A stretch of DNA of 64,000 nucleotides from Climacium dendroides (Eukaryota; Streptophyta; Bryopsida; Hypnales; Climaciaceae), in the NCBI GenBank assembly GCA_950106755.1, contig OX467083.1, positions 49,552,555-49,616,554 of the forward strand, given 5' to 3'. Below are positions 6,471-58,832 of the stretch, piece by piece (the first letter of the stretch is position 1; every line of letters starts with the position of its first letter). The notes beneath the pieces are model-generated. The model was not told the DNA's origin, searched no databases, and saw only the letters and a list, made by a program, of their open reading frames with translations. The position numbers and the translations under genes are program-made.

Positions 6471-9400
6471 TGTCGTAGCACAAGAAAGCAAAAATCCTTC
6501 TCTAAGGCTCAATATTTCTTAAAAGAGGCCTTAAAGTGACTCAAGTATCATTCCCACGAAGATCGAATTCCTAGGTTCACAATTACTGGAGAATGGTAGA
6601 GTGATGGTCACGAAATACAAAACCCCAAGCAAAACAATAGACCGGAACTCTACTTGGTCTCGTTGTTTTCTTGGACAAACCCGACCGGATCCCTCCGGTC
6701 CAACAATTACTAATACACGTTAGACCGGATTTTCCCGATCTAACCACACTGACCGGATTTAATCCGGTTTAACACCCACTTGTTTATCACACAGACTCTC
6801 TAACTGGTTGGTTTCCTACCCCACATCTTTACACTATCCCGTAACTCTCCCAACACTTCTATTTACATACCTCAAGTAGTATCCCGTATTTACGTTTTAT
6901 AGACCGTAATCGGGATCCGCATTTCCACAGATCTAACCTTAACCTCTAGTATTCACATCCGGTCCAGATCTCTACTCGTAACCATGTCGAGTTTAACCTC
7001 TGAACAAAGAGGGATCTGCTAATTGGGATTCAGGAAGGAAGCTTAACTCCTACCCTCTGATTTTAAAGTGTCAGAAGTTTTACTACGTGATCAAACTTTT
7101 AAAAATAAACTTTCAAATTCTACAAATGAGAAATAGACCGTCCTCACAACTGGAAAGGAAATGCAGTCGTGTCCAGTAGGTCACGCAAGTTGGTCTAATT
7201 CCTCCTAACCAATGCTACAACGACAGCCTACTGAGTTAGTCCTAAATCCGGTCTAAACTAGCGGGGACAATAAGGAGAAACGAGCGCTGCGGAGACATGC
7301 TAACCCTTACTCTTTCCAGAGAGTGGTCCTCAATCCGTACTCCTTCCGAGTCTATTCCTAGTCCACACTAGAGATCCCTTCTGCCTCTACCCACATACAC
7401 TAATTCAATACTGGACCGGATAAACTCAGCATCCAGGTACACCTTGTATCCACTTACACTCACTTTCCAGCCTGGACTTCCAAAACACAGACAAGTGTCA
7501 AGTACACACAACTATGATTTGTTTCAATCACGCCAAGAGCGAACTCCCAGGTACTCATGAATATAAGAAGGTAAGATAAAGATGCACACCGGGACCAAAC
7601 AAGTCCCGGATTTAAATACTAAACTACTCCCTCAAAATCCTAACCTAAAAGCAACCCTTCAGCCAATCAAGGCCAAACACGTTTCATTCCCTTACTATTT
7701 TCTAGCCTTGTTGATTTTTACTTAAACTCCCACTACTTCCGCTAAAAGTGGATCTCAGATCCTATAATTACGAACCCGGTCACTTTCCAACTGCTAGTGG
7801 ACTTGTCACTCAAAAAATAAACTTCCTAATTATGTACAACCATCCCAAAACTTCAGGCTTTCACCACCATATCCTCAGAAATTTACCCTAAGTAACTTTC
7901 TAAGTTCTTAACTTCTTCGCGGCCGGCTTCTTTACGGTTCCGGTCTTCTGTCCCTGGCGTACCTTACCCCGGGCGGCAAGCTTCTTCTTCTTGGATGTTG
8001 TAGCCTTAGTCGCCTGAGTCTCTGCCAGTGCTTGATCCGGGTCAAAATACGGCTCAAAGTCTTCCTCAGTCCCGGATTCTTCATCCTCGTCTTCTTCTTC
8101 TTCTTCTTCCTCCTTGTCATTGTCCTCTAGAATCGACCTCTTCTTCTGTGCTGACATAATTGGAGGCTTCTTCTTCTACGTGGTTGGTGTGGGCAGAACA
8201 TTGGCCCTAGCACTTTGAGGAGTGGTTTCCTCAATTGTTCTACCCTTCCCGGATCCTTACCCCTGAGATCCGGTCTTCCTTTCCTCCCTTGACCCAGTTT
8301 CGCTTCCCAAAGCTAAGTTGAGTGGGGTGGAAGGAAATACCTTTTCTGTCTTTGTGGGAGGAGTTGGAGAAACTAGAGATAACTCACTTAGGTCGATAAA
8401 CTTGGTGCTCAGCCCTGGTTTGGGCACGTTCTTCTTCTCGGATGGGTCCGGTCTAGATCTCACCTTTTTTTCATCTGCGGCCTTCACCTCCTCCGATGTT
8501 TCTTTCGCCTCGCCTGCTGTCTCCACTTCTCTGGTCTTCTCTTCCTCAGCAGCCTTCACTGCTTCTACTGCATTGAGAGCAATGTCTGTTACTTCCCCTA
8601 GTAGGGAAGTCATTTCTCCCTTAGGCTCCGACCGGATGAAAAAGCTTGGTACGTCCTCCACCTTGTCCTTCGCCTGAACTTCTTCTGCGGGTACCGGAAG
8701 GGGTGTTGGTGCGAGTTCCGTCTCCGTTTCCTGTTCCTGTTCCCGCTCTCTTCGTTCTTCTACCTCCTTCATCACCTCGCGTAGTGGCTCTACTATTGCC
8801 TCCATCTTGCGGTGGTAGGACACTAGCGCCATCATTACGTTGGCTGGAATTTGTTTTCCGGTCTCCATCACCTTCTCGTCAAACAGCATTGCTTTGTTGA
8901 TCACTTCGCCCGGATTGCCGATGAACTCCCGGATCGCCTGAAGATTCTTTGAGGCTGTTTTGGTGAATCTCTTCTGCTGGTCCAGTTCTTCTCTCTTTTC
9001 CTCCAGCTCCTTCGTTAGCTGGTCCACCTTACGCGTGGCTTCGCTCAGCTCTTTCTTCACCGCCTCTTTCATCTTCCGGTCTAGTTAGAAAACAAGTTGC
9101 TGCGGCTGACTGATCTTCTACAGTTGGTATAGTTCTTGAATGGTCTCTTGATTCTTCCTGTATTGGACCCAGAACTCACTGAGTTCCTTCATAATCCGAC
9201 CCAGAGGATCCTGGGTCCAGACCGGATTGACACCCTTATTACCCTCTCCTATTTCTGGGTCTTTATCCTTCCGGTCCTGCCTCCTCTACTGTAACTTAGT
9301 TTCCTCGACCGGTATAGTATCCGCCTTTGAATCTTCCTCTTTCTGCCCGGCTTCCTCATCCGGGTCTTTTATTTTGAATTCTGACATGGCTTTGGCCGTA

Positions 9401-10727
9401 TCGTATAAATCTAACTCTCTATTTGTAAGCCAGCCATGTGCTTGGTACAAGTGGTAGAGGAAAGGGGTTATAGGGGAAGGTTTAGACTTCCCTATGCCTC
9501 CTATCAAACTCTTTATCTGATCTCTCATCACTACTCCCCAATCTACTTTCTGGTCACCCGACAGTGCACCAAAAATAGTGTTTGTTAGGGTGACTGTAAT
9601 CCTGTTTGGCCGCTCTGGACTAAGGATGGCTGCTAGATACTTCATTAATTGTTTCTCCCTAACATTTATGCATCCTGCTATAGGGAAACCATCCTTCTTC
9701 GTTGGGGGATTCTGGAACTTATCAACGAAGAAGCGGTCTGTCCGCGAAGCGAGTCCCTTGTCCGTCTTCTTGAAATCGTACGTCTCCCACCATAGTGTTG
9801 GAGTCCAGTCCTCGGGTCGGCTCCTCGACGTCCCCTTCCATTTCCTCAATGGTGCGCCGATTACCTCCCTCACAATCTCCTCGTCCTTCAAATTCCAAGG
9901 TCGGGCTAGAAATCCTTCGCACCCCATCTGCCGAAGGTCTTCTTCTAGCTCCGCTTTCTCTCTTGGATCAACTGGTACTACCGGCTTCACCATGCGTAAG
10001 GACACAGCTGGATTGCTTCCTCTAAACTTCTCAGTGACCGGAATCACTCTTTGGAGTCTCACAATCACTAGCGCTCTAATCTTCTCACTCCGCTCAAGGC
10101 TCCTCCTCAAGAGTCGATTCAACAGTACACTTTTAATTCTACACTCATGCGTGAACTTCTAAGCGAACTCTCCTCTTGAGACCCGTCTTTCCTTAATCTG
10201 GACCGTAAACTAGAATATCTGAGCCCGTAACTCTTCCTTTGGCTGACATATAAGTACACCGCGAATGCTCCTCACCAGTCTCTTCTTAAGGCAGTTTCCC
10301 AGCAAAAGGAGGTCTCAGCCACCTGCCCCTCCTATTTCTAGGGCTTCATTCACCGGGGATCGTTACAGGTGACCGTTTTTCGAAAAATAGACCTGCTCTC
10401 GAGTGTGGTCTATAACTAGGTAGGCACCTGTTATGCCCGGATTGCATGCCATCCGATTCCGGTCTCCGGTCCTTTATTTTCTTCCAGTTTTTGGTGTCTG
10501 ATAAAACTCACTCTGACCTACTCTTGACCTAACTATACCGTTTCCGGGTTTTCGGTTACTTTTGTTAACACTATTATCTATTCTAAAGTAACCCTATTCC
10601 GATATCCGGTTCCTAACTACTTACGGTCTACTTTTCTAAAAAAAACGAAAAAAAAAATAGGGAGTAAGGAGCTCTAATCCCCTTATTTCCCTCCTAAACC
10701 TAAAGACTGGATTCCCGTGCTCCCATA
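6471..10727 (-). mobile_element. LTR-A: solo-LTR-like unit with an internal ORF
   Basis: The left boundary TGTCGTAGCACAAG matches LTR-C's boundary TGTCATAGCACAAG. The right boundary is tentative. I place it at CCCATA, where the next bases GGCGG differ by one from the left flank GACGG, which needs a terminal CA to TA change. No second copy of either end is seen inside, so there is no 5'/3' LTR pair. It lies between the two halves of a G-rich array and carries a minus-strand ORF. Confidence 0.6.
7900..10122 (-). pseudogene. LTR-encoded ORF of LTR-A (gag-like or plant-transposon-like)
   Basis: One frame runs from about 9993 (MVKPVVPV, the likely start; an upstream Met is at 10122) to 7900 and is interrupted by about five stops, mainly TAG and TAA. 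The first about 210 residues hold a domain shared by all the LTR units: EEDLRQMGCEGF, RPWNLK, ASRTDRF, PERPNRITVT and TIFGAL. A charged coiled coil follows (about 8850-9070), then Pro/Glu-rich linkers, then an acidic run and a basic Lys-rich tail. There are no zinc knuckles or catalytic motifs. The layout recalls the plant Pfam family Transposase_32, but that is inference. The function is unknown. Confidence 0.75.
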
Positions 10728-10965
10728 GGCGGTTTTAGTTGTCGTCCGTGTTCAACGTCCGCGCGATGACTGTCTGCGCCCCAACCCCACCGCCTACGTT
10801 CCTGTCGGGGGTATAAGTACCACCCTTGACAGTTCTGCCATGCCACCCCTGCGTTCTTGGACTTCACATTTGAGCTCCAAGTTGGGGTGGGGTACATAGG
10901 CTTTACAACTCAAAGTTCACGACTTCTCTTATTCTCTCATTCATTATTTTGGGTAAGAGGAAAAT
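10728..10965 (+). promoter_or_regulatory. Right half of the G-rich array and TATA box for the gene at 10966
   Basis: Between 10735 and 10800 the minus strand holds GGGGCGCAGACAG and GCGCGGACGTT, units of the same G-rich family. TATAAG at 10812-10817 lies about 150 bp before the ATG at 10966. With LTR-A removed, this and 6267-6470 would form one divergent promoter of a few hundred bases between the hAT gene and the gene at 10966. Confidence 0.5.
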
Positions 10966-11400: not shown

Positions 11401-11429
11401 AGTGATCATAACATTGTGATGCCCAAATA

Positions 11430-12212: not shown

Positions 12213-12952
12213 AGAAGTCAACAGTGCATTGGCTGTGATTTTTTTCCAATTTTCGAGGCAATAAAGTTTAGAGCTTCCACCTACTTGCTAACAGGTGGTG
12301 GCTATACAGCTCATAAAACCCTGAGACATGACGAATTTAGAGTGTCGTACGCGCAGTTAGCCGTAAGTATCCTTACAACGACAAATTGTCGTTGTCGCAA
12401 GATGACACAAATTATCGTTCCAGGGAACTTCTAGTATGATATCGATTGAATTAGAAGCATCCGGATTGTGACTACTCACTTAATCCTCCTTCTCTCATTT
12501 TCCCTACCTCACTCCGGAAACTTAGGACATTCCGGATTCCGTTCCAGATCCGGATACCTCCGGAACTTAGTTCCGTCTCTCTTCCGTCACTGGTTTTTGT
12601 TGCCTCTGTTTTACCCTCAGAGGGTCCACCCTTGATCTAGAAAGGGGTGGGGACTCACCACTTGTACAATTATCCTCTCTATACTCTAAATCTACTAAAT
12701 AGCACACCCAAGGCAACACAGCTGTAGGAGGAGGGAGGAGTATTCTCTCACAGTTTCCGGATTGGCCGATCCGGAAGCAGGTCACATAAAGAAATTCTCA
12801 CACCTCTCCTACTACAATGACGGATCCGAACTCATAGACCCAAAGGAATAGAATTTCAAGGAGAAGACAATGTACTTAAAGGGGGAGGCGGGTAGACCTT
12901 CAGGAGTAGCGGGAGTTCCTTTCCTTTGGCGGTTGCTTATCTCCGCACAGAA

Positions 12953-14308
12953 CTATAGTTTGGAATTTATTATAGATTTAACTATTGAGAAATTCCTATA
13001 GTTACGAGTTCGTTCGTAGGGAGGTATGGTTTACAATAGGTAATTCCTAAGGCAATCTATTAATCCAAGTTGTGCACAATTGAAGGATAAGGGGAAATAT
13101 TTCACATTGACCCAAACAATAGATCTAAACCATATTATAATTAAAATCAGGGCTGGAGACTTATCAATTGTATGTCAATCTATCAATTCAGCTTTATCTG
13201 TTCACTCCCATGTCAGCCTCATCAACCGCATTGGTATAGTCTTCTATTGATCTCCTCGTTTAGCAACCAACATCTCCAATTGATTCTTTGTTTATGTGTT
13301 CACATCGACGAATTGCTCGTTGCAGGATATATTTTCTCCGGTTTTTTATGCCTCCCTTATTCTCTCAATTCTATTGATTTATAATTCCAAAATCTCTCTC
13401 TTCATAAACAATTAATTTCACTGCCTCTATAGATTAACAATCAGTTCAAACCATTAAAACATTCAATAGCATCCAAATCACACATAATTGACATTCCCAT
13501 GCATTCAGTCCATCGACTATTGATAATACAATTAAATTCACGCACAACCAAGCATGCAATCACAACAATAACAATAGAATTTCTCACAATCAGTTACACC
13601 TATAGTTTAACACACCACTCAGATGGTCACATACACCATTGATAAAAACAATTAAAATCCATATACACAGACATTCACATCCAATTACACCCATAGAAAT
13701 TCCTCATTGAAATTAAATCTATAGACTCAACATTCAGCACACAAACACACGCAACAATAGCAAGAATTCCAATTGCAGAATCACATCCAAAAATATACAC
13801 ACACAATCTCCACACATTTGAACACCGCACTATATAATAATAAATTCCGCATTATATTCCAGCATAGAATTTTACAATTGATCCTCACTCTTGTCCAACT
13901 CCACTCCGTAATATCTATCGATCCAGCATAACTAAAACCAATCACTAGCACTATAGAGAATGAACTCCACCCACTGAATTCACAAACACTCACAACTATC
14001 CATCACACTCACACTGTTGGTCGCACCGCCGCAGGAGACCTGGCTCTCTCCAGACTAAGAACAATTGACTTTCCCCACGGAACTTCACCTAAACACCATA
14101 GCCAACCACCTCAACCGCCAACACAATAGAATTCATCCATCTAATCCCCTTGAATCTCATCCATCTATTGGCCAAAACTATAGAAAATCTTCCTACCCGG
14201 GTAATAGCCTATTGTTAACATTGTAACACCACTATCACTATAGAAAACGAGGTATTTAACCAAAATTTTAAAACTCTTCACAAATTCCCTATAGATTCTT
14301 AACTACAA
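12953..14308. mobile_element. Unclassified AT-rich insertion in LTR-B, 1.36 kb
   Basis: LTR-E shows the empty site: GCACAGAA continues straight into TCCTCCTGG at 41205-41222. In LTR-B this is split, with GAA duplicated at 12950-12952 and 14309-14311. The ends share only a weak inverted match (TAGTTTGGAATTTAT against TAGTTAAGAATCTAT). Words such as CTATAGATTTAAC, ACAATTAAAT and CACACA recur inside. No coding region is recognised. Confidence 0.7.
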
Positions 14309-14885
14309 GAACCCTCCTGGTTCTGGACTCATAGGAATCTCTACCTTCTTACCCGGATTGCTGTTCCGGCAGTTCAAAGGCACGTAACACTCACACTCCC
14401 TTACTCAGCTCGCATCTCTCCCACCTAGCTCAACACCCAAGAGATCCGTAGCTCAAGATCCGGATTCCTCCTCTCCCTCCCTTCTCTTTCTCCAATACAA
14501 GGATACACACACATGCATACACTGAGGCAAAGATTCCGTCTAAGCAAAGTGCAGCTAGAAGTACCTTGACTGACTTAGATTAAGAAAAGAAAATTGTAAT
14601 ACATACATGAAAGCACTAAGATGGAATGGAGTAGAATGGAATGGCCGACAACTAACTTGCCTGCCTTTAAAATACTAAAACAAAAACCCAAAGTCAACTC
14701 CTAAAAGCCTGAAAAGGAAACCCAGAAATCCAGGCAACCAATCACTGAACACCTCGGGATATCCGAAAAGACTAATAAATACCGTCCGAAATTGCCGGAT
14801 TTCCTTACTATCCGCCTAAGATTCCGGAAACCGGGCCCATGCTCGGAAACTCGATCCGGATCCTATACTTTTGTTCCTACGGATT

Positions 14886-17094
14886 CTAATGCTTTGGCTT
14901 TCGCCCTTTCCTTGAGCGGCTCCCTGCTTGACTGGTAGGTGTCCCTTTAAGGCCATATTCGTTATATTGAGACTTTTGGTAGTCTCATTTTTATCCTCGA
15001 TTCAAAGATAATTCATAATAACTGTTCAATTTTAAGACTATTTGGTAAGTTGAGATTTCAATATATTAATATATATAAAAACCTTTGATTTTCCAAAGGT
15101 TGCAGGCTCATCTTATCCTCGACTCGAGGATAAATCACTATAACTGTTTTAGGGTTGTAGTCTCAAAATGTGTAGATTGTCTCACTTTAACGAATAAGGC
15201 CATCTTTCGTATTTTTAGCTGGCGTGGTCTTCGCTGTAGCTTGAGTCTGGATATGGCGCATTGCGGGAGACGGATCGCTGTCGTCCTCAGTTCCGGAAGT
15301 GGAGTGAGCACTCTCCTCCTCAGAGTCTTCAATGACTTGAACTTCCTTCTCCTTCTCTGGTGGTGTATCCTCCAATGTTGCGGGTTTGCTTCTCTTTTCC
15401 GGCGTGGTCTCTTGCATGTGTGCAAATCCTTTCGGATTAGTCTGAGCCGGATTGGTCATTCCACCGATCCGGTTGATGAGGTCTCCTCTAACTTGCTGTC
15501 CCGGAACCTTGAATGATCCGGTCATCAAATTCGGCATTGTTTGTGACTTGGGAACTTCCGGAGTTGAGAATTTGGGTGGTACTGGAACCGATTTCACGCT
15601 AGACTCAGGTTCTAGTTCCGAAGCTAGCCTCAAATTCAGCTCCGTCATCCACATCTTGCTGGTGGAAGGCTCGACTAGTGTGAATATCCCCCTCAATCCC
15701 TCCATCCGAGTTGCACGATCCGCCACCGGTCTCCCTGCAGTACCCGAAACAAAAGGAAGTTCCGGAAAGGTGGAGAAATCCATCACCTGGTTTGGATCGA
15801 TAGTCGCCAATAGCTGCTGGATCTCCTTCAAAACTCGCTCTATCCTCGCAGTGAAGTCTACGAGGATGGTCACTACCTTGGTTCCGGTAATGTGGCCTTC
15901 TGATATCAGCTTTGAGTCCAACAAGGCAGCTTTCATGACGAGGTCGGCTTTGATGTTGACTGCTTCGGATAGATTCTTGACTAGAGCGAGAGCCTCTTTT
16001 TCTTTCTCCTTTGAAGCTACCATTTTCCCTTCCGCCCAATTCACTCGGGCTTGGAGTTGGTTCCATTCCGCCTCCAACTCCTGGATCCGCTCCTCCCTTC
16101 TCTTTAGATCTTCCGGTTTGGGCAGTCGCTTGACAGCTTCCACAATCTGATCCGGCTCCACCTTCAAAACTTTCACGGTATCTATTACCAAATCCGCCAG
16201 GCTGTCGTGGAGTACCTTGGCCTCACGTATCCACTCGAGCCCCGCATTGAAAAATGCGGATTCCGTTTCCACTTCAGGTCCCTTGCTGGACTCCCCCCTC
16301 TCCATCGCCTGTGGCTTGGATCGCGACCTTGGATCGGTTGACTTCCTCTTCTTGGTCCTCGGATCGGTCAAACATTCCTCGAAAAGTTCCTCTGGATCAG
16401 ACTCGACTAGATCTTCCGCCTCCTCCCCGGAAAGTCCGTATGACAGGATCGTCTTTCCAGTGTCATACTGGATTACTTCCGCTACACTCAAAAGAACCTG
16501 TTGATGGTACAGATGGAACAAATAGGTTCTAACTAGACTCGCTTTTGCTCGGGTCACATGATCCGCTAACTTAGCCACTATCCCGGCTATGACTCTACCC
16601 CAGTGCACCACTTGGTTCTCCATAGCCCCGAAAATAGTATTGGCCACCGTAATGGTAATCCATGTAGGTTTTTCCGGGTACAGGATGGGGATGAGGAACT
16701 CTAGTATCCGCCTATGTCTCTTGTCCTTGCATTCGCTAATAGCGAATCCGTCCTTAGGGTTTGTAGACCCGGTGAACTTCCCAGCTACAAAACGGTCCGT
16801 CCTCGATGCTAACCCGTTCCCGCTCTTCCGGAACTGATAGACGTCCGCCCAGATGTCCTCGGTCCACGCGACTAGCCGCCCTCTCAAAGTGAGCTCATAC
16901 TGATTCGGAACACCATGAAGTAGCTCCTGAATCATATCTTTACTCTTGAGGTTCCATGGTCGATGTAGTAGACCGACACACCCTAACTTAGTCAAGTCCT
17001 CCTCTAATTGTTTGTGTAGTTCCGAGTTATCCGGAATGGCCGGAGAGATAACCCGGGCAGATACCGCTACCTTCCGTACTGGTCCGGATGCCAT
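14886..17094 (-). pseudogene. LTR-encoded ORF of LTR-B, best-preserved copy
   Basis: It starts at 17094 (MASGPVRKVAV) and stays open to the MITE at 15201. It resumes after the MITE with a Thr/Ser/Arg/Lys tail that stops at 14886, matching the end of the LTR-E copy. The shared domain is at residues 30-215 (EEDLTKLGC, HRPWNLKS, SRTDRFVAGKF, NPKDGFAI, ANTIFGAM). A charged linker, a coiled coil (about residues 315-400) and an acidic Ser/Glu-rich tail follow. It has no nonsense codon over about 630 residues, unlike its relatives, so it is the youngest or least decayed copy here. The function is unknown. Confidence 0.8.
14951..15201. mobile_element. MITE with GGCC-start inverted repeats, 251 bp
   Basis: The left end is GGCCATATTCGTTA and the right end, reversed, is GGCCTTATTCGTTA, both followed by a GAGAC word. 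The flanks suggest CTT duplicated. The homologous place in LTR-E (about 41848) has no insertion. A second member lies at 63088-63336. Confidence 0.8.
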
Positions 17095-17229
17095 AAGATC
17101 TAAGTCAGAACGAGGGAGAAGTAACCCTACTTTAGTCGCTAACTCACCATTCTTTCTCTCAACTACTCACACGAACAATCTCAAAAAAGCAAAACAGGAA
17201 AGTGAAGAGGAAAACCCTAGGCAAACAGC

Positions 17230-17236
17230 TTAAATA
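17230..17236 (-). promoter_or_regulatory. Probable TATA box of LTR-B
   Basis: TATTTAA on the minus strand lies 280 bases from the LTR start (17516) and about 140 bases before the ORF start codon. LTR-E and LTR-D have TATA-like words at 289 and 288 bases. Confidence 0.55.
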
Positions 17237-17516
17237 CTAACCCGTCTTCTTACGAAATTCAAGACAACAGCTACAGGTCCGTTGTACTAATGGTATCCTA
17301 CTCCCGTAGCTACGAGCCCTATACGGTAGGTTCCTGTGTTCCGGGTGAATCTGGATTCCGGATCCGGATAAGTTCCGGTTATGGGTTCTGTCAGAACGCT
17401 TATTTCCTAATTCGAGTTTTCTTATCCAAAAATCACTTTCTAACTATGAAATTTTTTATTTTTCCTACTTTTCGCACCTACTTTTTGTATTATTGATCCG
17501 TTTCCGGATTCCCACA

Positions 17517-21392: not shown

Positions 21393-23849
21393 TTAGGCTT
21401 CGCCCACATCTATAGGACTACTAGCAATGCCACTTAGACCTGCTTCATCGTCATGTGTGCCGCATTCGAGAATGTGGTCTTCATCAGAGCCCAAGCGAAG
21501 CCTCCGGACTATAGACCGAGTTCGCCTAGCTGGCCCATCCTCCTCTAATATGGCCCTCAAAACTTGGGATTGTTGGAGCTCTTCAAGCGCTTGACACGTT
21601 TGTAGACTATGTTGGTCCAACAGAAAATCTACCGCATCAAGTTTGAACTGGTTTTTCCACTCGGATTTCGACATCATGACTCTTTCCCGTGGACCAGACA
21701 TGTCATATCCGTCATCGTTGTCGCTTTCAATATTCACCACCTCGTGCTCGTTAATACGCACTCCATCTTTATCCCAGAGTCAGTTTCTGGGGTGGGGCCC
21801 AAATCTGAATTTCTTCTCATTTTCATGCCAATGCCCGTTGAAGCATTGGAAGAAGAAATTCCTCTTTCCTTGGCTTGCTTCCGATGTGCCTTTAATCAAG
21901 TTGTGGCACACTTTGACAACTACATCTGAATCATTTTCCCAACCCCATTGATCACAGAGTCGGGACTTCTCCAACGAGTGGTACTTGTACCGCCAATTCT
22001 AGACAAGGTCTTCTCCCCATTTGTTGTGATGGTTAAGTGCATTGTTGGCATCAAATTCCCAACTTGGTGGTATGAATTCGACCAAGCCAAACAACTCATA
22101 AAAACGCTCGTGGAAAGGAGCCTTGCACACTACACAGTGTCTACGGTTGACCATTAAGCTGATCAAGCAAATTGGGTGATACAAGTACCCACACGTGCCC
22201 AAATGCATTCCGCCTTCCGGGCCAAAGTTATTTAAACAAATTATACACTGAGTTCCATCTTCAACAAAGGCAGACGGTTTTGGCCATAATAATTTACTAG
22301 GGGTGGTTACATCGGCAGACATGGCATTCTGAAAATCCCAACCACTTTGAGCCTAATCAATGACAATCTGATTTCGAGAGATGACTTTGGTCGCCATTTT
22401 CTCGGGTTGGAAGAGGTCGTCCATAGGGGCCCAAGAAGTTAAGCCGAAGACATGCTTTTGATTGTATTCAAGATATGTGTTGAAAATTTTAGTGAACTCG
22501 GTAGCCATTTGTTGGTTCCTATCCACGGTGAACATGCATGCCAACTTCCATTGATAATACTACGAGACCAATGCATTCAAATGCTCTTGGAGCTCCACAT
22601 TCCGTGCAAGAAAGGATGGAAGGTCTTTGTCCTTTGCTGTGACGGCTGCTGCAGGAATATCTTGAGGTTCTACGACTATGGAACGAACCTCATTAGTTAT
22701 CATGGTCGTTTCAAGAGCACGTTGCAAGCAACCAATTTCTTGGGATTGTCGGGTGATGGTATTGTTCTTGTCTTCCAACTCCACCCTCAATCTGTGACAA
22801 TCTTCATATAGTCCTTGAAGTTCGCTGATTTTGTCATTCAACTCCTTCAAACTCTCAACCGTGTCCACCTGCACATCTATTTCCTCTTGCATTGGCATAA
22901 GAGGTTCTTCTTCACTTGCTTCAGGAACTGGTTCATTTGGTGCTTCAATGACCGGTTCATCAGGAACTATTGGTGGAACACCTTCTTCATGCTCATCCAT
23001 TCGTAAGGCCCTCCGTCTTTTGATGCGTTGCTGACTCCAAGTAGTTGGTGGTCGTGGAGGCGTACGTGTGCCATCGGAATCATTATCTGTAGAGGAATCT
23101 TCGGTCACATAATTGTTGTGAGGCACTTCCACTATTGTTCTGAAATGTTCCAATCCACCCTCTGGATACCTTCGTGCATTCATCGGGATTAATCCGTTTG
23201 TGGGATGTGGCACTTTGATTTTGTTGCTTCTTTCTACTACAGTAGACCAATCCACCATCTTTCCAAGTTTGACTTCTGCATGTACGCCCCGCGCAATGAA
23301 AAGATGAACCTCGTTGCGTTCCATGGTGGGTCAATTATACAACACTTGGTACACGACAATGCATCGGTTCTTGAATGCATCATCTGTGCAATACCTCAAA
23401 TTTGCTTTGTTGAATTGGTGGTGATGATTATGCCGATCTTCTGGGAAGGATTTGCCAATGTGGCACCACTCGATGTAGGAGGCACAAGTTTCCATGGTCC
23501 ATGGATCAGGTATGTCTTGCCAACCTCTAAATGCAAGTTTCGTGGGATTTTGTAAAACGTTTGTGGGAATATGATCCCACATGCTGGATCCATAATACTA
23601 GCATATGACGGAAAAATTCAAAAATTGTCTCCTTCAAAAAGAAAGTTTTTGAGTTCTCCTAGGAAGTTAGGGCAATTTCGGAAAACCGGATTTCCAGATC
23701 AGGTAAAATTTCATTAGGGCTAAAAACCTAATTCCGGAATCCTAGAAAGTTCCGGAAATCGGATGACGGCGCCGGCCCTAAAAACCGGAAACCAGATCCA
23801 TACTAGGATAGGGTTTTGCCGCCAAAACCTGTCCCGTACATCGGGCCAG

Positions 23850-23855
23850 TATAAG
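23850..23855 (+). promoter_or_regulatory. TATA box of LTR-D
   Basis: TATAAG in a GC-rich context lies 288 bases from the LTR start. LTR-C inserted 40 bases downstream, close to where transcription would begin. Confidence 0.6.
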
Positions 23856-23889
23856 AGGGGGACTGTAGCCGGTAGTGGGCACGCGTATC

Positions 23890-26800
23890 TGTCATAGCAC
23901 AAGGAAGCACAAATCCTACCCTTAGGTATTAAATTGATGTAAAACACCTTAGATGACTCGTGTATCGTTCCCACAGGATTTCAACGTTAGTTTCCTCAAG
24001 ATATCCGGAACAGGATTCGGAAAACACCAAACCCAAGCAAAACCGGATCTAAATATTTGCAACATAAAACTCTCTCAATACCCTCTCTTCTCCATAATCC
24101 AATTCCCTTACATCCACACCAAGTCTTCCACCAGTAATCGAACAAGGAGGATTGTCATAATCCTGTGCTTCTCTCTATCCGGATCAACTTAGACGGATGC
24201 GGAACCGGAAAGAGGATTTCTATCCGGTTACAGTAACTCACAAAATCTTAGTTTAACCTCTACCAAGAGGGTTCCGCTCTTTGGTTTTAGGAAGGGAACG
24301 TAAACCCTACCCTTCAAACGTGTTTAGAGTGAAATGAAGATCCACTTAAAATAACAACAACAAACACCAGAATAGGAAATAGTTACTTCCTCACAACTAA
24401 CCCGGATGTTGATCCAGACTAGCAGGTCACTCAGGAAACCCCTATTATCCTCTCAGTACTACAACGACAGACCTATCCGGACAGAATTCCAAGAGCGTGA
24501 TCCGGCACCCGATAACTGAGAGATCCTAACTACCTTCCTGTTCCTCTCTTCCGGATTTAGTAGAACCTCATCAGACGTCAGTTGGTGTTCATTCTCCCTC
24601 CTGAAGAATTCACCCAACCTAAGAATGGCTATCCTACTCAGAAGACACCCAAGGAACTTCACCAACCAGAACTCCCTCTCAGTACACAAAGTTTTCCTTA
24701 ACCAAACCTCAATGCTCTCAAAATCAGATCCTAGACAGAATCCGGGGGCTACTTGTCTTCCTCCACACCTGCAAACCAGCTACCCGCACTAAACAATGGT
24801 TCTAGCATTGCACGGCATACCAATATAGAACTTAGCCTTTTCAGGCCAGCACTTATGAAGTGGAAATTTGAAATCAATTCGCAAAGTGTTGAAAAAAACA
24901 CAAATATGAAAACACACCCGCCCGGGGCTTCAAGCTAACTTCAGCCCCCTAAATACACATTCCAGGGAACCCTAAAGGTCCCAAGGAATAAAACTAAAGG
25001 ACAGGAGAATGACAAGTGTCATTCCTTATCCTTCTAAGTTGACTTTCCTACCAACCCCATCCGATCCGTAAAATGTGGATCTCAGATCCTAAAAATCCGG
25101 AAAGTGCAGTCTGAGTGCATGCACCGGAAAAGCACCTCCCAAGCTACTTCCTACCTACCAAAAACTTGGGTTTTTGGCTGACCATGCTAGGGTCGCTTCC
25201 CAGAAACTTCCTAACTACTTTCCTACCTATTTCTTAGCCTTCTTTGGAGAAGGTTCCTCTAACTTTGTTGCCCCCTTCCTAGTTGGTTGTTTCCTACTGG
25301 CTGATGGTTTTCCACTCAAGGGTGGCTTCCCTTTAGATGGTGTTGAAGCTTTCCCCTTGAACTTCGTTGGTGAGATTTGCTCAGGTTCCGACTCCTCTTC
25401 TGATCCGGTGTCTTCCGAATCTTCTTCTCCGGATCTCGACAGACTTTCCTCCTGCTCGGATTGGCTTGGAGATTCGTCCTCCGCGGATTGTTGACTCCTT
25501 AGAGGCACGTCTCTTCCTCTGATGGGAGTAACCTTCTTCACAGTCTTCTTGGCGGTTGAGGGTTGAGAGCTTTTACTCGGTGGTGTGCCTAGGTCGGATT
25601 CCGACTTCCGAATTTGAGTCTTCAATCCGGATCCATGCACTGATCCTTCTTTCCTCCCCTCCATACTCTTAGACATTGGTGTCAACTCCTCCTCCTGCCT
25701 TTCCTGCTTGGCTGGCGTCTTCGTTGGAGTCTTTGTGGGCGCATCCTTCTTGGTTGGCTCCATCTCCTCATCCTCCTTCTTTATTCCGGATTCCGGAAAC
25801 TGTTCTGCTTGGTGAAGAACATCTCTGACTTCAAACATGAACTTCTCCATTTCTTCGGAATACTCTGCCAACACCAGGACAGCCTTACCTGTGGCTTCCA
25901 GTCTTGCCTCATGGATCCTCTCATCATAAAGTTTGGCTTTGTTCACAACATCCGCAGTGTTGGAAACAAAGGCCCCAACTCTCCTAATGACCCCCTTAAA
26001 CTCTGAGGTAAGCCGTTCCACCTCTCTCTTCTTTTCCTCACCCTTCTCAATTTGCCACTGGAGATCCGCATTCCTCTCAGTCAACTCCTTGATGCGGGTC
26101 TCCCCTTCCGGTTTTCACTATCCCGGAGCAACCTTTCTACTCTCTCTGCGAGCTCTGACACTTTGATCCCTCCAAGTAGTCCACATACATTCCTCACTGC
26201 TCCTCTCTCCATGTCAAGCTCCTCCCGGACTCTCCCTAAGTCCGAAATGATCCTCCCCAAAATATCCTCTCCCAGAACTTTCAGTTCCAACGAGGCTTTC
26301 CCTTTTCCTTTGGATCCCCTCTTAGAAGAGACTGACACCCTTTCAGCCTCTATCCTCCTTTCGGAAGGCTCCTTTCTTCTCTCTGAGGATTCCCCCTCAG
26401 ATCCCTCATCTGGTCCTTCCTTTCTCTCTTCTTCCTCTTCCTCTCGGGGTGGGGTAAGATTAAGTTTCACTAGGGTGACTGCGGCCTTGTACATGGTCTT
26501 CTCTGAAGTTTTCAGAGTACCTAGGGAGTCATACAAGTGAAAGAGGAATGGCCCAATGGGGGTGGCCTTTGCGTTTCCTAGGGCGTTTACCATCTTCCCT
26601 ACCAGATCTTTCACTATTCCTCCCCAAAACACTTTCCTTTCCCCACTCAACGCTCCGAAGATCGTATTGGCCCAAGTTACCGTGACCCGGTTTGGCCGTT
26701 CCGGATACAGGATTGGTACTATAAATTCTAACATCCTCCTCTCTCTTGCTACCTTGCAATCTGCTACTGCGTAGCCATCCTTAGGGTGAGGAGGATTAGA

Positions 26801-27753
26801 GAATTACCTTCCGCGAATTTGTGAACCCGCGAAGCCATCCCCTCTCCAGATCGAGGAAAGTCGTAGACCCTCTTCCAGATGTCCCTCGTCCACTTTCCGG
26901 GCAGAGCTTGGACGGTCTTGATCCACTCGTTCGACTGCTCATTCATCAACTCCCGGATCATTTCCTCGCTCTTCAAGCTCCATGGTCGGCAAAGGAATCC
27001 CGCACACCCAAGTTGGCCCAGATCCTCCTCCAGCTGCTTCCTCTCTCTGTCATCCTTCGGAATCACTAGACAGATGCTCTTGATCTTGAAAGGAGATGAC
27101 CCGCTTGCTTCCACCTTCACCATGGTTGTAGAACTCTCCAAAACACTCACTACTCAAACCTCCTATCCTTTTCTTGCCACAGCTCCCGGTCAATCCTCTT
27201 CCTCTCCTCGACAGGATCCGGAAAGTAAGATCACCCAATCCTCTCTCACCTCTAAAGACAGACCTCGCTCTAAGAGTGCTCCCAGACCACAAAGACACAA
27301 TGAGGTTTGAGGAACCAAACCCCTGTGTATCCTTTCCTGGCAGTCACAGCCGTTGGGAAAGTAGCCGTTTCCGCAATCATCGCGGAGGAATCTAGCCGTT
27401 GAACGGTCCTCCGTGATGTATGGGATTACCGTTGGATCCGGGATTTCCTCTTCCTGTCCCGATAATCTTCCGGTAGCGGGCGGATGCGTTTGCTTCCGGC
27501 CCCGGTATATTTTTCCGATCCTTGTTTAGTTCCTTGGGTGCGGATCCGGTTCCGGATCTTTAGGAAAACATGAAACTTACAATATCTTTCTTAACCAAAT
27601 TATCTATCTACTACTAATCCAATAGTGAGGTAGAGTTAATATTGGTAATATGATTAATTTACCATTTTGTAAATCATAAAATTTTACCAATACCAATTCT
27701 TTACTTCTAAATTCTATATAACCAACTTCATCCTCTCATTTTGGTCTACGACA
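23890..27753 (-). mobile_element. LTR-C: solo-LTR-like unit nested in LTR-D
   Basis: The + strand ends are TGTCATAGCACAAGG and GGTCTACGACA, with GTATC duplicated at 23885-23889 and 27754-27758. It is 3,864 bp. It carries the minus-strand ORF at 25227-27150. No repeat of either end is found inside. Confidence 0.9.
25227..27150 (-). pseudogene. LTR-encoded ORF of LTR-C
   Basis: The start is at 27150, or at an internal Met (MVKVEAS) at 27123. The shared domain is clear: EEDLGQLGCAGFLCRPW, KSEEMIRELM, WTRDIWKRVYDF, YPERPNRVTVT and TIFGALSG. A charged helical region and a long Ser/Lys/Pro tail follow (KGKASTPSKGKPP near the end). It is broken by two frameshifts, one near 26764-26790 after FAEG and one near 26084, and lacks the many stops seen in LTR-D. 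Function unknown. Confidence 0.75.
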
Positions 27754-27911
27754 GTATCTCTTTGTTTGTTCTCCCGCTAGTGTATTCCGTCTTCCTAGTT
27801 TTGTTAGAATTCCGGTAGATTGAGGGGCTGTGTGAGTTGCGATCGTGCAGGGGTTTCTGGAGTGAAAGTTTGTGAGTAGAGAGTTAGGGAGAGATTGTGT
27901 GAGGGTTGCTT

Positions 27912-40241: not shown

Positions 40242-41789
40242 CATGTTCATCATTATGATGGTGGCTGAGACAACACTTGTCCCTGATCCATTGTACAACG
40301 GGGTAGTAGCTTGTCTGTAAAGGTCCTCCAATCCGTCCACACTATCACCACCAACGTCATCATTTTCGGGAAACTCCCCACTACCTTGAGCTTCTCCGTG
40401 TAGTGCGTCTCCTCTGTGCAATGCCTCAAGGACCTGCCGGTGGACTTCGTGATATGCATCTAAAGGGATGTGGGGCTCCGCATCAGCTTACCCTGCATTT
40501 TCAGGCTGTGCGACGTTGTTGTTGATGTTAGGCTCAATGTCAGAGGGAGCATTGTCAATGACATCATCGTCATAAGCAATGTCCTCAACCCACATTCCCC
40601 GTCGTGGATAGTGTTGTACGTGCAGTTAGCCGTAAGTATCCTTACAAAGACAAATGGTTGCAAGATGACACGAATTATCGTTCCAGGGAACTTCTAGTAA
40701 GATATCGATTGAGTTAGAAGTATCCGGATTGGGATTACTCACTTAATCCCCCTTCTTTCACTTCTCTACTTTATTCCGGAAACTTAGTACATTCCGGATT
40801 CCGTTCCGGATCCGGATACCTCCGAGACTAAGTTCCGTCTCTCTTCCGTCACTGGTTTTTGTTGCCTCTGTTTTACCCTCAGAGGGTCCGCCCTTGATCT
40901 AGAAAAGGAATGGGGACTCACCACTTGTACAATTATCCTCTCTATACTCTAAATCTACTAAACAACACACCCAAGACAACACCGCTGTAGGAGGAGGGAG
41001 GAGTATTCTTTCACAGTTTCCGGATTGGCCGATCCGGAATCAGGTCACACAAAGAAATTCTCACACCTCTCTTTACTACAACGACGGATCCAAACTCATA
41101 GACCCAAAGGAATAGAGTCTCAAGGGGAAGACAATGTACCAAGGGGGAGGTTGGTAGACTTTCCGGAGTAGCGGGAGTTCCTTTCCTTTGGCGGTTGCTT
41201 ATCTCTGCACAGAATCCTCCTGGTTCTGGACTCGTAGGGCCTTCTACCTTCTTACCCGGATTGCCGTTCCGGCAATTTAAAAGCACGTCACACTTACACT
41301 CCCTTACTCAGTCCGCATTCCTCCCACTCAACTCAACACCAAGAGATCAGTAGCCCAAGATCCGGATTCCTCCTCTCCCTCCCTTCTCTTTCTCCAATAC
41401 AAGGTTACACACACATGCATACACTCAGCCAAAAGACCTTGTCTAAGCAAAAGTGCAGCTAGAAGTATCCTAGTTGACTTAGATTAAGAAAAGAGAATTG
41501 TAATACATACGTGAAAGCACTAAAACGGAATGGAGTAGAATGGAATGGCCGACAACTAACTTGCCTGCCCTTAAAATACTAACACAAAAACCCAAAGTCA
41601 ACTCCTAAAAGCCTGAAAAGGAAACCCGGAAATCTAGGCAACCAATCACTAAAAACCCCGGGATATCCGGAAAGATTACTAACTACCGTCCGAGATTGCC
41701 GGATTTCCTGACTATCCACCTCAGATTCCGGAAACCGTGTCCATGCTCGGAAACCCATTCCGGATTCTATACTTCTTCTCCTACGAATT

Positions 41790-44700
41790 CTAATATTTTG
41801 GCTTCCGTCCTTTCTTTGAACGGCTCCCCGCTTGGCTGGTAGGCGTCCCCTTCGTATTCTTTGCTGGCGTGGTTTTTGCTGTGGCCCGAGTTTGGATATG
41901 GCGCGTTGCGGGAGACGGATCGCTGTCGTCTTCGATTCCGGAAGTGGAGTGGGCACTCTCCTCCTCAGAATCTTCGATGACTTGAACTTCCTTCTCCTTC
42001 TCTGGCGTTGTATCCTCCAATGTTGCGGGTTCGCTTCTTTTCTCCGGCGTGGTCTCTTGCATATGCACAAATCCTTTCGGATTAGTCCGAGCCAGATTGG
42101 TCATTCCACCGATCCGGTTGATGAGATCTCCCCTGACTTGCTGTCCCGGAACCTTGAATGATCCGGTCATCAAGTTCGGCATTGTTTGGAACTTGGGGAC
42201 TTCCGGGGTTGAGAATTTAGATGGCACCGGAACTGATTTCGGGCTAGACTCAGGTTCCGGTTCCAAAGCTGGCCTCAAATTCAACTCCGTCATCCGCATT
42301 TTGCTGGCGGAAGGCTCGGCTGGTGTGAGTATCCCCTTCAATCCCTCCATCCGGGTTGCATGATCCGCCACTGGTTTCCCTAGGGTACCTGAGACAAAAG
42401 GAAGTTCCGGAAAGGTGGAGAAATCCATCGTATGGTTCGGGTCGATAGTCGCCAATAACTGCTGGATCTCCTTTAAAACTCGCTCTATCCTCGCAGTGAA
42501 GTCTACGAGGATGGTTACTACCTTAGTCCCGGTAATGTGGCCTTCCGATATCATCTTCGAGTCAAACAAGGCAGCTTTTGTGATGATGTCGACCTTGATG
42601 TTGACTGCTCCGGATAGATTCTTGACCAGAGCGAGAGCCTCTTTCTCTTTCTCTTTTGTAGCTGCCATTTCCCCTTCCGCCCAATTCACTCGGGCCTGGA
42701 GTTGGTTCCGTTCCGCCTCCAACTCCTGGATCCGCTCCTCCCTCTTCTTCAGATCCTCCGGTTTAGGCAATCGCTTGACAGCTTCCACGATCTGATCCGG
42801 CTCCACCTTCAAAACTTCCGCGGTATCTATCACCAAATCCGACAAACCGTCGTGGAGTACCTTGGCTTCACGTATCCACTCGAGCCCCGCATTGAAAAAT
42901 GCGGATTCCGTTTCCATTTCAGATCCCTTACTGGACTCCCCCCTCTCCATCGTCTGTGGCTTGATTCGCGACCCCGGATCGGTTGACTTCCTCTTCTTGG
43001 TCCTCGGATCGGTCAAACGTTCCTCGGGAAGTTCCTTCGGATCAAACTCGACCGGATCTTCCGCCTCCTCCCCGGAAAGTCCGTATGACAGGATCGCCTT
43101 TCCGGTGTCATACTGGATCACTTCAGCTGCACTCAAAAGTTCCTGTTGATGGTACAGATGAATCAAGTAGGTGCTAACTGGACTCGCCTTTGCTCGGGTC
43201 ACGTGATCCGCTGACTTAGCCACTATCCCGGCTATGACTCTACCCCAGTGCACTACCCGGTTCTCCATAGCCCCAAAGATAGTATTGGCCACCGTAATGG
43301 TAACCCGTGTTGGCTTTTCCGGATACAAGATCGGAATCAGAAACTCTAGTATCCGCCTATGTCTCTCGTCCTTGCATTCACTAATAGCGAATCCGTCCTT
43401 AGGGTTTGCAGACCTGGTCACTAGAAGAAAAACGTGTCCGTTGCAACCCACTGAGATGCGACTATGTGTCCTATACAACTGAAATGCGACTGTAGCCCTC
43501 TGTATTTGCACCAAATTTCACGTGTATGTAGTTGTAGTCGCAAAGTAGTCATAAAATGAAGAATAGGGTTACGATATTGTAACAGAAGAACTGACATGAG
43601 GTGTTATACATCCAGTATTCATTGCAGTTGTCCATGTGGACAGCTATCCGCGAAGTAGAGTCCACCGTGGAAAAATGCAATCGCTCTGATTACAGGTTGC
43701 AATTAAAAACTAGAAGATTGCAACTTAGAAATGACTCAAATGCAACTAGGAATCAACTATAATGCAACTAAAGTCCAACTACAGTGCAACTAAAAAACAA
43801 TTCAAATGCAACTAGAGAACAAGTGTAATGCAGCTAGAACATGACTGAAAATTGACTCAATTGTTCCATATCGATTGTCAAGAATACCATCAGCTTGAAC
43901 AGATAAGAATGGTAAGTTACAGTATTCTTGTGTAATGAATTTTGATAGTGAAATTCTAATATTTATATATTTTGTAGATTTTTACACTTTGTAGATTTCT
44001 ACAATTTGTAGATTTCTATAATCTACAAGTCTATAAATTATAACCAAGTCGCAAACTAGTTGCAAACCAGTTGTATGTCAATCGCAAACCAGTTGCACAC
44101 TAATCGCAAACCAGTTGCACATCAATCGCAAACTAGTTGCACACCAATTGCAAACCAATTGTATGTCAATTGCAAACCAGTTGCACTCTAGTCGCAAACG
44201 AGTTGCACATCAATTGCAAACTAGTTGCACATTAATCGCAAACCAGTTGCACATTAGTCGCAAACCAGTTGCACACAAATAAGTGAAATAACTTCCACGT
44301 AAGCAACCACGTCACAGCAGTTCATCGACGAAGTTCTCCATTGCCTATCGAATGACAAACAACCTCGCGACTACAGTGCAACTCATGTGACTTGTCCACT
44401 GCGACTGCGGACTCCAAAATATCACCAAGTTTCAAAAGTCCGATACGACTACAAACCAGTCGCAAACCGTAGTCGCAAAACCCTGCTTTTTCTTCTAGTG
44501 GGTGAACTTCCCAGCTACAAAACGGTCCGTCCTCGATGCTAACTCGTTCCCATTCTTCCGGAACTGATAGACGTCTGGCGCCTAGATGTCCTCGGTCCAC
44601 GCGACTGGCCACCCTCTCAAAGTGAGCTCATACTGATTCGGAACACCGTGAAGTAGCTCTTGAATCATCTCTTCACTCTTGAGGTTCCATGGTCGGTGTA

Positions 44701-44827
44701 GTAGACCGACACATCCTAACTTAGTTAAGTCCTCCTCTAACTGCTTGTGTAGTTCCGAGTTATCCGGAATGGCCGGAGAGATAACCCGGGCAGATACTGC
44801 TACCTTCCGTACTGGTCCGGATGCCAT
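41790..44827 (-). pseudogene. LTR-encoded ORF of LTR-E
   Basis: It starts at 44827 (MASGPVRKVAV), is cut after KFT-like sequence by the CACTA element at 43419-44500, then runs open to 41790, ending KKGRKPKY. Near 44590 a TGG has become TAG and three bases are added relative to LTR-B. Domains are as in LTR-B: conserved N-terminal domain, coiled coil (NQLQARVNWAEGEM), acidic Ser/Glu tail, basic end. Confidence 0.78.
43419..44500. mobile_element. Non-autonomous CACTA element in LTR-E, 1.08 kb
   Basis: The ends are CACTAGAAGAAAAACG and CTTTTTCTTCTAGTG, with GGT duplicated at 43416-43418 and 44501-44503. LTR-B shows the empty site at 16771-16773. About ten 22 bp units with the core CGCAAACCAGTTGCAC lie at 44041-44280. 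The element at 46768 has the same ends and related words (GCGACT, GCAACTA). Confidence 0.92.
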
Positions 44828-44961
44828 AAGATCTAAGTCAGAACGAGAGAAAAGTAGCTCTACTTCAGTCGCTAACTCACCACTCTTTCTCTCAACTACT
44901 CATACAAACAGTTTCAGAAGCACAGAACATGAAAGTGAAGAGGAAAACCCTAGGAAGACAG

Positions 44962-44969
44962 TTTAAATA
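44962..44969 (-). promoter_or_regulatory. Probable TATA box of LTR-E
   Basis: TATTTAAA on the minus strand lies 289 bases from the LTR start and about 135 before the ORF start codon, as in LTR-B. Confidence 0.55.
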
Positions 44970-45541
44970 CTAAACCGTCTTTTTACGGGCTTAAGGACAA
45001 CGGCTACAGGTCCGTTGTATTAACGGTATCCTACTTCCGTAGCTACGAGACCTATACGGTAGGTTCCTGTGTTCCGGGTGAGTCCAGATTCTGGATCCGG
45101 ATAAGTTCCGATTACGGGTTGTGCCGGAACGCTTATTTCCTAATTCAAGCTATTTGGTCCAAAAATCACGCTCTAACTATAAATTTTTGATTTTTTTTTC
45201 TATTTTTCGCACCTACTTCTTGTATTATTGATCCGTTTTCGGATTCCGGATTCCCACAGATAGCCCTCGGGAGGGTCTCCACCTAGTAAGGATTTTGTAA
45301 GAAATGGATCTCGACCAACCTCTCCGTGGTGCCGACGAATAACCTGAATGGTTTTTTGTAAACTGCCCTTGCAATCCCTGCAGGGACACCTGAATGATCG
45401 AATATTTTGCTCTGTGGCCACTCTCAACTCAATGTGCAAAATCAAGTCACCAAGTGGAATGTGGCGTAACGTGCGTCCGTCTTTTGAAATACGGATAGTT
45501 GCACCTTGTCGGCGGGATTGGGAATTGAGACGCCACGCCAT

Positions 45542-57620: not shown

Positions 57621-57624
57621 TGTC

Positions 57625-57830
57625 CTTCGTCTACGCTCTGAACTGCACCCTCATGTCCACGCCCACCATTTCTCGTCCGCGTCCTAAACAACGTCCACGC
57701 CCCTTTTCCCGTCTGTGCACCTGAACTACGTCCACGCCCTGATAGGGTCCGCGCCCCATGTCGTCTACGTCCCCGCCCACACCTTGTTTCCGCCCCGACT
57801 CTCTTCTGTCTACGCCCCACCCTCCATACT
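57625..57830 (-). repeat. G-rich motif array on the minus strand
   Basis: Read on the minus strand it has GGGCGGGGACGTAG, GGGGCGCGGACC, GGGCGTGGACGTAG, GGGGCGTGGACGTT and GGGCGTGGACATG. No start codon with support is seen beside it. Confidence 0.75.
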
Positions 57831-57967: not shown

Positions 57968-57974
57968 AATGTGA

Positions 57975-58832
57975 CAACCTAGCCCTCTCCAAATCTCTTT
58001 TGTCCACATGGGTGACATTGGGCGGATGGTGTTGTCGAACTGGTTAGGAGCTCCCTCTATGAACTCCCTAATTATAGCCTTATTTCTGAAGCTCCACAAT
58101 TTTTCGTAGAAATCCGTACATCTCATGACGGAGAGATCTTCCATCAACTCTGATCTCTCATAGTCCCCACTAGGCTCTATCGGCGCCACCTTTCTGATTT
58201 TGATTTCTACCTTAGGTGCGCTAACTTGTCTCAAAGATCTTGGACGTTTTAGCTACAGCATTTGGCTCCTCACCAATTAACTACCTCACTTTTCTCCTAG
58301 CCGCACGTCTCGTTCCTCACAATATCTCCTCGGTCTCAACCGAATTAACACCTACGTCAAATCTCACACAAACTCTCGCGACGCTCGCCCAATCTCAACC
58401 GACTACACTCACTTAGGCGCACACAGCTAACACTTGTACCTTAATCTAATCCCTACTCCGTGGCTGAGCACAAAGGAAGCACATACACAAGAATGCTCAA
58501 ACAGTTGAAAGCGTGAGGGAAGGCTAGAGCTCTTAGATGCAAATGGGAAATCAAAATCCTAAAGGAAGCTTTTTGTATTCTGGAAATATAATCATTATTT
58601 TTTTTCCGCTTTTTCGGGTGCAGATTCCGAGTCCGTTCCTTTGGCTTTGGATCTAGACCGGATTTGTTTCCGATATCTGCTCCATCTTTATTCTGGTTGG
58701 TGACTACTTGTCTTCCTAATCATTCTAACTTTTAATTTTTCTCTTCTTCTTGTACTAGTTTGGGCATACTACTTCTGGATTCCGTGTTTTAAAACACAAT
58801 AGAGAAAAAAATCAAAAAGTTGGATTGTGACA
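57975..58832 (-). mobile_element. LTR-F: start of a 3' LTR, truncated, with the ORF start inside
   Basis: On the minus strand the LTR begins TGTCACAATCC at 58832, directly after a polypurine tract and the end of integrase. 598 bases in, an ORF starts at 58234 and shows the shared domain: MEDLSVMRC, KLWSFRNKAIIREF, GAPNQFDNTI, MWTKEIWRGL. It breaks at about 57975. This places the shared ORF downstream of the LTR start, not in the internal region. Confidence 0.75.

What the first reader, a model, noticed from the sequence alone, without database searches (positions are those of the whole stretch)
6471..58832. A protein-coding ORF carried inside the LTRs of a gypsy-type lineage
Units B, C, D and E have TG...CA ends, C, D and E have perfect 5 bp duplications (GTATC, ACGTT, GATAG), and all are 3.5-3.9 kb once nested elements are removed. 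None has an internal pair of direct repeats. Each holds the same 635-740 codon ORF (conserved N-terminal domain, coiled coil, acidic/basic tail). LTR-A fits with a less certain right boundary. Ends plus duplication without paired repeats is the solo-LTR signature, so the ORF would be LTR-borne. The real gag, with CCHC knuckles, is separate.
Basis: partly seen in the sequence, partly recalled or inferred. Interest (0 to 1): 0.87.

Follow-up and report, generated by a model that had tools for sequence, protein, structure and literature searches.

The report
Protein gene inside retrotransposon long repeats
A large family of jumping elements, probably of a plant, carries a protein-coding gene inside the end repeats that are normally non-coding, and selection has kept that gene, so single leftover repeats may still be genes.

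Summary
One element has two 3,555-bp LTRs about 9.5 kb apart, a perfect 5-bp duplication and a polypurine tract; both LTRs hold the ORF unbroken, 649 codons. A second has the duplication, a primer-binding site and a polypurine tract. A third has gag, protease-like, RT, RNase H and integrase between unit-A-type LTRs, its ORF partly deleted in both. In the window, C, D and E are solo LTRs; A and B fit, with mutated flanks; a sixth copy (58832) is a 3' LTR directly after pol. The ORF is under strong purifying selection: median dN/dS 0.13-0.18 in frame, 1.13 and 1.23 in shifted frames. No Pfam family over its cut-off, PDB or PHROGs relative was found. A TATA-like site after the ORF in three of four LTR types suggests that the ORF lies in U3, like sag of mouse mammary tumour virus. 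Function is not shown; I infer a trans-acting nuclear accessory protein. New variant of a known kind.

The parts
6471..10727 (-). Unit A: LTR (4,257 bp) of the A family, fits a solo LTR; flanks GACGG/GGCGG (4 of 5)
   Evidence: boundaries sharp in genomic copies; coordinates and flanks
8257..10005 (-). LTR-borne ORF of unit A, broken into frames of 290 and 275 codons (tail continues below 8257)
12343..17516 (-). Unit B: LTR with two inserts (about 12953-14307 and 14946-15205); flanks TAGAG/TGGAA (3 of 5), duplication not clean
15190..17094 (-). LTR-borne ORF of unit B from its ATG; last codons lie beyond the 260-bp insert, at about 14889-14948
23890..27753 (-). Unit C: solo LTR (3,864 bp), duplication GTATC/GTATC, nested in unit D
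25227..27123 (-). LTR-borne ORF of unit C, frameshifted
23562..31099 (+). Unit D: solo LTR (3,669 bp without C), duplication ACGTT/ACGTT
   Evidence: same ends in another D copy
27912..30002 (+). LTR-borne ORF of unit D, one frame of about 696 codons with six in-frame stops
40612..45258 (-). Unit E: solo LTR (3,565 bp without an insert at about 43419-44500), duplication GATAG/GATAG
41790..44893 (-). LTR-borne ORF of unit E, split by the insert
57983..58832 (-). Unit F: start of a 3' LTR (TG at 58832) with the N-terminal piece of the ORF at 57989-58213
58836..58845 (-). Polypurine tract before the 3' LTR F; the sequence before it resembles the pre-LTR sequence of the C38 and C35 elements (by eye)
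58872..63998 (-). Decayed gypsy gag end (CCHC), protease, RT, RNase H and integrase region directly upstream of LTR F
   Evidence: Pfam integrase hits; the other parts by similarity to the C34 element

Best explanation
This is a Ty3/gypsy LTR retrotransposon lineage whose long LTRs (3.5-4.3 kb) each contain a sense-strand gene of about 650-710 codons. Shown: the ORF lies inside the LTR, in both LTRs of full-length elements; it has been kept by purifying selection while the elements diversified; solo LTRs still contain it. Inferred, about 0.6: the ORF lies in U3, with the genomic RNA starting at a TATA-like site after the ORF, so reverse transcription copies the gene into both LTRs, and a separate promoter upstream of the ORF can express it from any LTR. 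Inferred, about 0.5: the protein (helical N-terminal domain, coiled-coil-like middle, acidic stretch, basic tail) is a multimeric nuclear accessory factor that acts in trans on element RNA, DNA or chromatin, for example in nuclear import, target choice or relief of silencing.
For: ORF in both LTRs of one element with target duplication and polypurine tract; second full-length element with duplication, primer-binding site and polypurine tract, both of its N-terminal hits carrying one TGA; third with an internal gag-PR-RT-RH-INT set and remnants of the same ORF in both LTRs; F begins directly after a polypurine tract downstream of pol. Four pairs of N-terminal hits 9.1-9.5 kb apart on one strand among 150 scored rows, counted by eye. 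Selection: 17 sequences, 136 pairs, median dN/dS 0.148; without L038 and winB, 105 pairs, 0.133, N-terminal domain 0.098; ten equal-length copies, 45 pairs: in-frame 0.181 against 1.134 and 1.233 in the two shifted frames. Family A, 10 copies: codon-position diversity 0.062/0.046/0.152 in the N-terminal domain. Post-ORF blocks shared by LTR types A and C and, shorter, C and D; TATA-like sites 279, 209 and 270 nt after the stop in A, B and C.
Against: No transcript or protein data. The C34 element inserted with the ORF's N-terminal half deleted in both LTRs, and the C35 pair and one C40 pair each carry one stop of the same kind in both N-terminal hits, so the ORF is not needed in cis for every insertion. 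No TATA-like site was recognised at the equivalent place in D, and the B tail shares no block with the others. The second structure model was of low confidence. The 14 copies fetched for dN/dS were chosen for long open frames. dN/dS ranged up to 0.71 in one pair.
Confidence: 0.88

Rival explanations
1. The ORF lies in R or U5, not U3: genomic RNA starts at the TATA-like site upstream of the ORF, and the protein is the first cistron of the genomic RNA.
For: TATA-like sites lie upstream of the ORF in B (144 bp before the ATG in L032) and D (read from the sequence at about window 23849), and at variable distance in A.
Against: The upstream site is not at a fixed place across LTR types and the leaders share no detectable similarity, whereas a TATA-like site recurs 209-279 nt after the stop in A, B and C.
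Confidence: 0.3
2. The ORF is a passive or purely selfish passenger of the LTR with no role in the element's cycle.
For: Elements with the ORF deleted or stopped in both LTRs did insert; five of 20 A copies have different larger deletions in the ORF.
Against: Median dN/dS 0.13-0.18 with dS up to about 0.55, and 23-48% amino-acid identity in the N-terminal domain across LTR types whose leaders are otherwise unalignable.
Confidence: 0.12
3. The units are not LTRs but another kind of element, or the ORF is internal and the LTRs are short.
For: Units in the window have no paired repeats.
Against: Full-length elements with two such LTRs, PBS, PPT and duplications.
Confidence: 0.02
4. The ORF is a distant member of a known plant TE accessory family (Transposase_28 PF04195 or Transposase_32 PF20167) moved into the LTR.
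For: Similar architecture as recalled (helical domain, coiled coil, charged tail); TRP28 ORFs are common in Retand elements (PMC11963269, abstract and passages seen).
Against: No such Pfam hit for any ORF copy scanned; PF20167 gave 0 matches in the whole genome (it rang in none of 14 control genomes either, so this is weak). A genome search with PF04195 did not complete.
Confidence: 0.12

Closest known systems
MMTV sag (LTR gene of mouse mammary tumour virus)
   Same: A protein gene lies within the LTR, the majority of it in U3 (PMC4667437, passages seen).
   Different: No relation of the proteins is known to me (not tested here); sag belongs to a retrovirus of mammals and is about half as long (recalled). 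Here: a Ty3/gypsy retrotransposon, probably of a plant, with thousands of first-look candidates in one genome.
Extra ORFs (eORF/aORF) of plant Ty3/gypsy elements, e.g. Retand antisense TRP28 ORF (Ogre ORF1 recalled)
   Same: An extra protein in a gypsy element besides gag-pol.
   Different: Those are described as lying in the internal region (PMC11963269, passages seen); this one is sense and inside both LTRs, without a Pfam match.
Retrosat2 (with RIRE3, RIRE8) ORF0
   Same: LTRs of about 3 kb or more and an extra ORF.
   Different: ORF0 is located upstream of the gag-pol ORF (PMC3485330, passages seen), not described there as lying in the LTR.
HML8 LTR ORF (human endogenous betaretrovirus)
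   Same: An LTR ORF is mentioned (one figure legend of PMC2664473, seen).
   Different: Only the legend was seen; coding function and relation not known to me.

Membership tests
Ty3/gypsy LTR retrotransposon | paired direct LTRs starting TG and ending CA | tested here: met
Ty3/gypsy LTR retrotransposon | 5-bp target-site duplication | tested here: met
   GCATT, CGACT, CAAAA on three full-length copies; 7 of 13 A copies perfect
Ty3/gypsy LTR retrotransposon | primer-binding site and polypurine tract | tested here: met
   both seen; one search shows the PPT and a weaker PBS-like stretch. The match to the tRNA-Asp 3' end is recalled, not computed
Ty3/gypsy LTR retrotransposon | gag-PR-RT-RH-INT order | tested here: met
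   on the C34 element (protease hit below the Pfam cut-off)
OTA (Ogre/Tat/Athila) superclade | RT-RH-INT phylogeny | not tested
   no reference set was at hand
Plant eORF/aORF elements | extra ORF in the internal region | tested here: not met
   ORF is in the LTRs
Transposase_32 (PF20167) | match to the profile | tested here: not met
   (control of 129 silent too)
Transposase_28 (PF04195) | match to the profile | tested here: not met
   no hit in Pfam-A scans; genome search not answered
LTR (U3) gene, as MMTV sag | ORF in the LTR | tested here: met
LTR (U3) gene, as MMTV sag | ORF upstream of the genomic transcription start (U3) | tested here: inconclusive
   TATA-like sites only

The most novel reading that the evidence does not exclude
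Every LTR is a complete gene (own promoter, ORF, terminator), so solo-LTR formation, normally the death of an element, leaves behind a working gene. The many solo LTRs, perhaps thousands, would then form a dispersed gene family that supplies a trans-acting protein to the remaining full-length elements, and to ORF-less deletion derivatives.
Probability: 0.35. Interest if true: 0.9.

Novelty: new variant of a known kind. Interest (0 to 1): 0.78.

Why it matters
LTRs are ordinarily taken as non-coding; one paper says so and names sag of MMTV as its exception (PMC4667437, passages seen). A selected gene carried in both LTRs changes what a solo LTR means, complicates LTR-based dating (one LTR pair shows a conversion-like tract), and could mislead gene annotation, which may list these ORFs as host genes. 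It also makes a test possible: does a gene placed in the LTR let solo LTRs help mobile copies in trans?

Tried and rejected
Rejected: chance ORF (frame-specific dN/dS); captured gene inserted once (the ORF is shared by divergent LTR types A, B/E, C, D, F and one in L031); a D-type hit pair 8.0 kb apart that looked like a full-length element proved to be one D LTR nested in the ORF of another; known fold (Foldseek on PDB and BFVD, VIA-align on 222 chains and a PDB profile search all without a match). Post-insertion selection on the C38 LTR pair was considered, because its ORF differences lean to synonymous (12 against 7), and rejected: 42 of 51 differences fall at LTR positions 1919-2974, which looks like gene conversion. 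A scan of viral contigs with the 649-aa protein matched nothing, and one of prokaryote contigs gave 4 pattern matches, none a relative. The organism was not identified; 'plant' is my inference from the kinds of elements. Paper searches answered: 24, 40, 75, 84, 99, 120. The two phrase searches listed 16 and 18 papers; of these I looked at passages of six: two state or mention a gene or ORF in an LTR (PMC4667437, MMTV sag; PMC2664473, an HML8 LTR ORF), four use the words otherwise (PMC4016481, PMC12037069, PMC13195028, PMC11117352). The other 28 I saw in the listing only, many of them on MMTV by title. No plant case was seen, but most subscription papers are not held, so absence from print is not shown.
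Full report
What is in the window. A protein search of the window with its own ORFs finds six copies of one ORF: five inside units A to E and an N-terminal piece at 57989-58213. Units C, D and E have TG...CA ends and perfect 5-bp duplications (GTATC, ACGTT, GATAG); C sits inside D. B has the right ends, but its flanks match at only 3 of 5. A's right edge was unclear, and genomic copies settle it at 10727; its flanks match at 4 of 5. Without nested inserts the units are about 3,559 to 4,257 bp. A self-comparison of the window shows no repeat pair of 100 bp or more that bounds a unit.

The genome. The window is G000:C2:49552555-49616554 of a 412.6-Mb assembly. Twenty copies of family A were fetched, of 40 rows scored and 445 candidates. 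Thirteen had both ends found: by eye, 7 have perfect 5-bp duplications, 3 match at 4 of 5, and 3 do not match (L013 at 3 of 5, L026, and L019, which is the 3' LTR of a full-length element). So 10 of these 13 behave as solo LTRs; of the other seven of the 20 one or both ends were not found.

Full-length elements. L019 and its neighbours hold a whole element: two A-type LTRs 98.2-98.5% identical, the 5' one with a 2.3-kb insert, duplication GCATT on both sides, a TGGCGCC... primer-binding site 8 nt after the 5' LTR, internal gag, protease-like, RT, RNase H and integrase regions, and a polypurine tract. Both of its LTRs lack the ORF's N-terminal part and keep a later part. A search with the B-type N-terminal domain scored 150 of 4,918 candidates, all at 88% identity or more. 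By eye it contains four same-strand pairs 9.1-9.5 kb apart; partners outside the 150 rows would be missed. The pair at C38 was fetched: 3,555-bp LTRs, duplication CGACT, a polypurine tract, and an unbroken 649-codon ORF in both LTRs. Of the pair at C35 only the edges were fetched: duplication CAAAA, primer-binding site 4 nt after the LTR, polypurine tract; both of its N-terminal hits carry one TGA. A like search with D-type protein (150 of 4,538 candidates scored) gave no full-length element: its one close same-strand pair was a nested insertion. For C-type no search was answered. In the window, F starts directly after a polypurine tract, and the sequence before it resembles the pre-LTR sequence of the C38 and C35 elements.

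Selection. Fourteen of the 150 rows were fetched, chosen for long open frames; with the two C38 LTRs and unit B this makes 17 sequences and 136 pairs. Median dN is 0.043, dS 0.304, dN/dS 0.148, range 0.075-0.71; differences by codon position sum to 5893, 3902 and 15612. One copy, L038, has a different C-terminus and a higher ratio (0.52 against L032). Without L038 and unit B the median is 0.133 over 105 pairs, and by region 0.098 (N-terminal domain), 0.125 and 0.179. As a control, ten equal-length copies give 0.181 in frame and 1.134 and 1.233 in the shifted frames. In family A, ten copies, of which only L018 has the whole frame open, give diversity 0.062/0.046/0.152 by codon position in the N-terminal domain, and 0.079/0.061/0.126 over the ORF against 0.088 outside it.

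The protein. It has a conserved N-terminal domain of about 220 residues, a coiled-coil-like middle (judged by composition and by Pfam coil hits below their cut-offs), an acidic stretch and a basic C-terminus, and no CxxC motif. There is no Pfam family over its cut-off, no PHROG, no PDB sequence relative and no structural match. One model of the domain is good (pLDDT 83.9); a second, from another member, is poor but shows a similar order of helices. A Transposase_32 search of the whole genome gave nothing, with a silent control.

Where in the LTR. Beyond the ORF, LTR types A and C share several blocks, the first starting about 130 nt after the stop, and C and D share a short one (22 columns); B shares none. 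A, B and C have a TATA-like site 279, 209 and 270 nt after the stop, 1,161, 967 and 1,068 nt from the LTR end. Leaders before the ORF share nothing detectable between types. This suggests that the genomic RNA starts after the ORF, so the ORF is in U3. TATA-like sites upstream of the ORF in B and D could drive the ORF itself, or the genomic RNA. These points are inference from sequence.

How it would work. If the ORF is in U3, the copy in the 3' LTR is carried at the end of the genomic RNA and placed in both LTRs by reverse transcription; each LTR can then express it. The element whose ORF was deleted in both LTRs (C34), and two pairs with a stop of the same kind in both N-terminal hits (C35, C40), suggest that the protein is not needed in cis for each insertion; trans supply by other copies, solo LTRs included, would explain both this and the strong selection. 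The function itself (nuclear accessory factor) is a guess from architecture.

Known relatives. [quoted passage not shown] A review of them does not hold the phrases 'in the LTR', 'inside the LTR' or 'within the LTR' (PMC7264820). Retrosat2 ORF0 is upstream of gag-pol (PMC3485330, passages seen). A gene in the LTR is described for MMTV (PMC4667437, passages seen) and an HML8 LTR ORF is mentioned (PMC2664473, one legend seen). Phrase searches of the held library showed no plant case (28 of 34 listed papers seen only in the listing), which does not prove that none is in print.

Noticed in passing
6288-6435, 12060-12160, 19652-20126, 31306-31521, 57654-57778: Clusters of the motif GGGCGNGGACG (26 matches in the window with up to one mismatch against 0.95 expected, 25 of them in these five clusters); origin unknown.
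   Followed up: partly
3865-4992 (-) and 38830-39777 (-): hAT transposase (Dimer_Tnp_hAT) and CACTA-type tnp2 transposase (Transposase_21) fragments.
   Followed up: partly
L032/L033 (G000:C38), LTR positions 1919-2974: 42 of 51 differences between the two LTRs of one element fall in this 1-kb stretch, which looks like a gene-conversion tract and would spoil LTR dating.
   Followed up: partly
L010, L011, L016, L019, L020 (family A copies): Different deletions removing much of the ORF's N-terminal half, each with its own breakpoints; that of L019 is in both LTRs of a full-length element.
   Followed up: partly
43419-44500, 14946-15205, 54527-54742, 60446-60604: Inserts or repeats with inverted ends (CACTAG-like or GGCCATA-like), MITE-like by eye, two of them inside LTRs B and E.
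   Followed up: no
L054 (G000:C40:1502550-1502800): A D-type LTR inserted into the ORF of another D-type LTR.
   Followed up: yes
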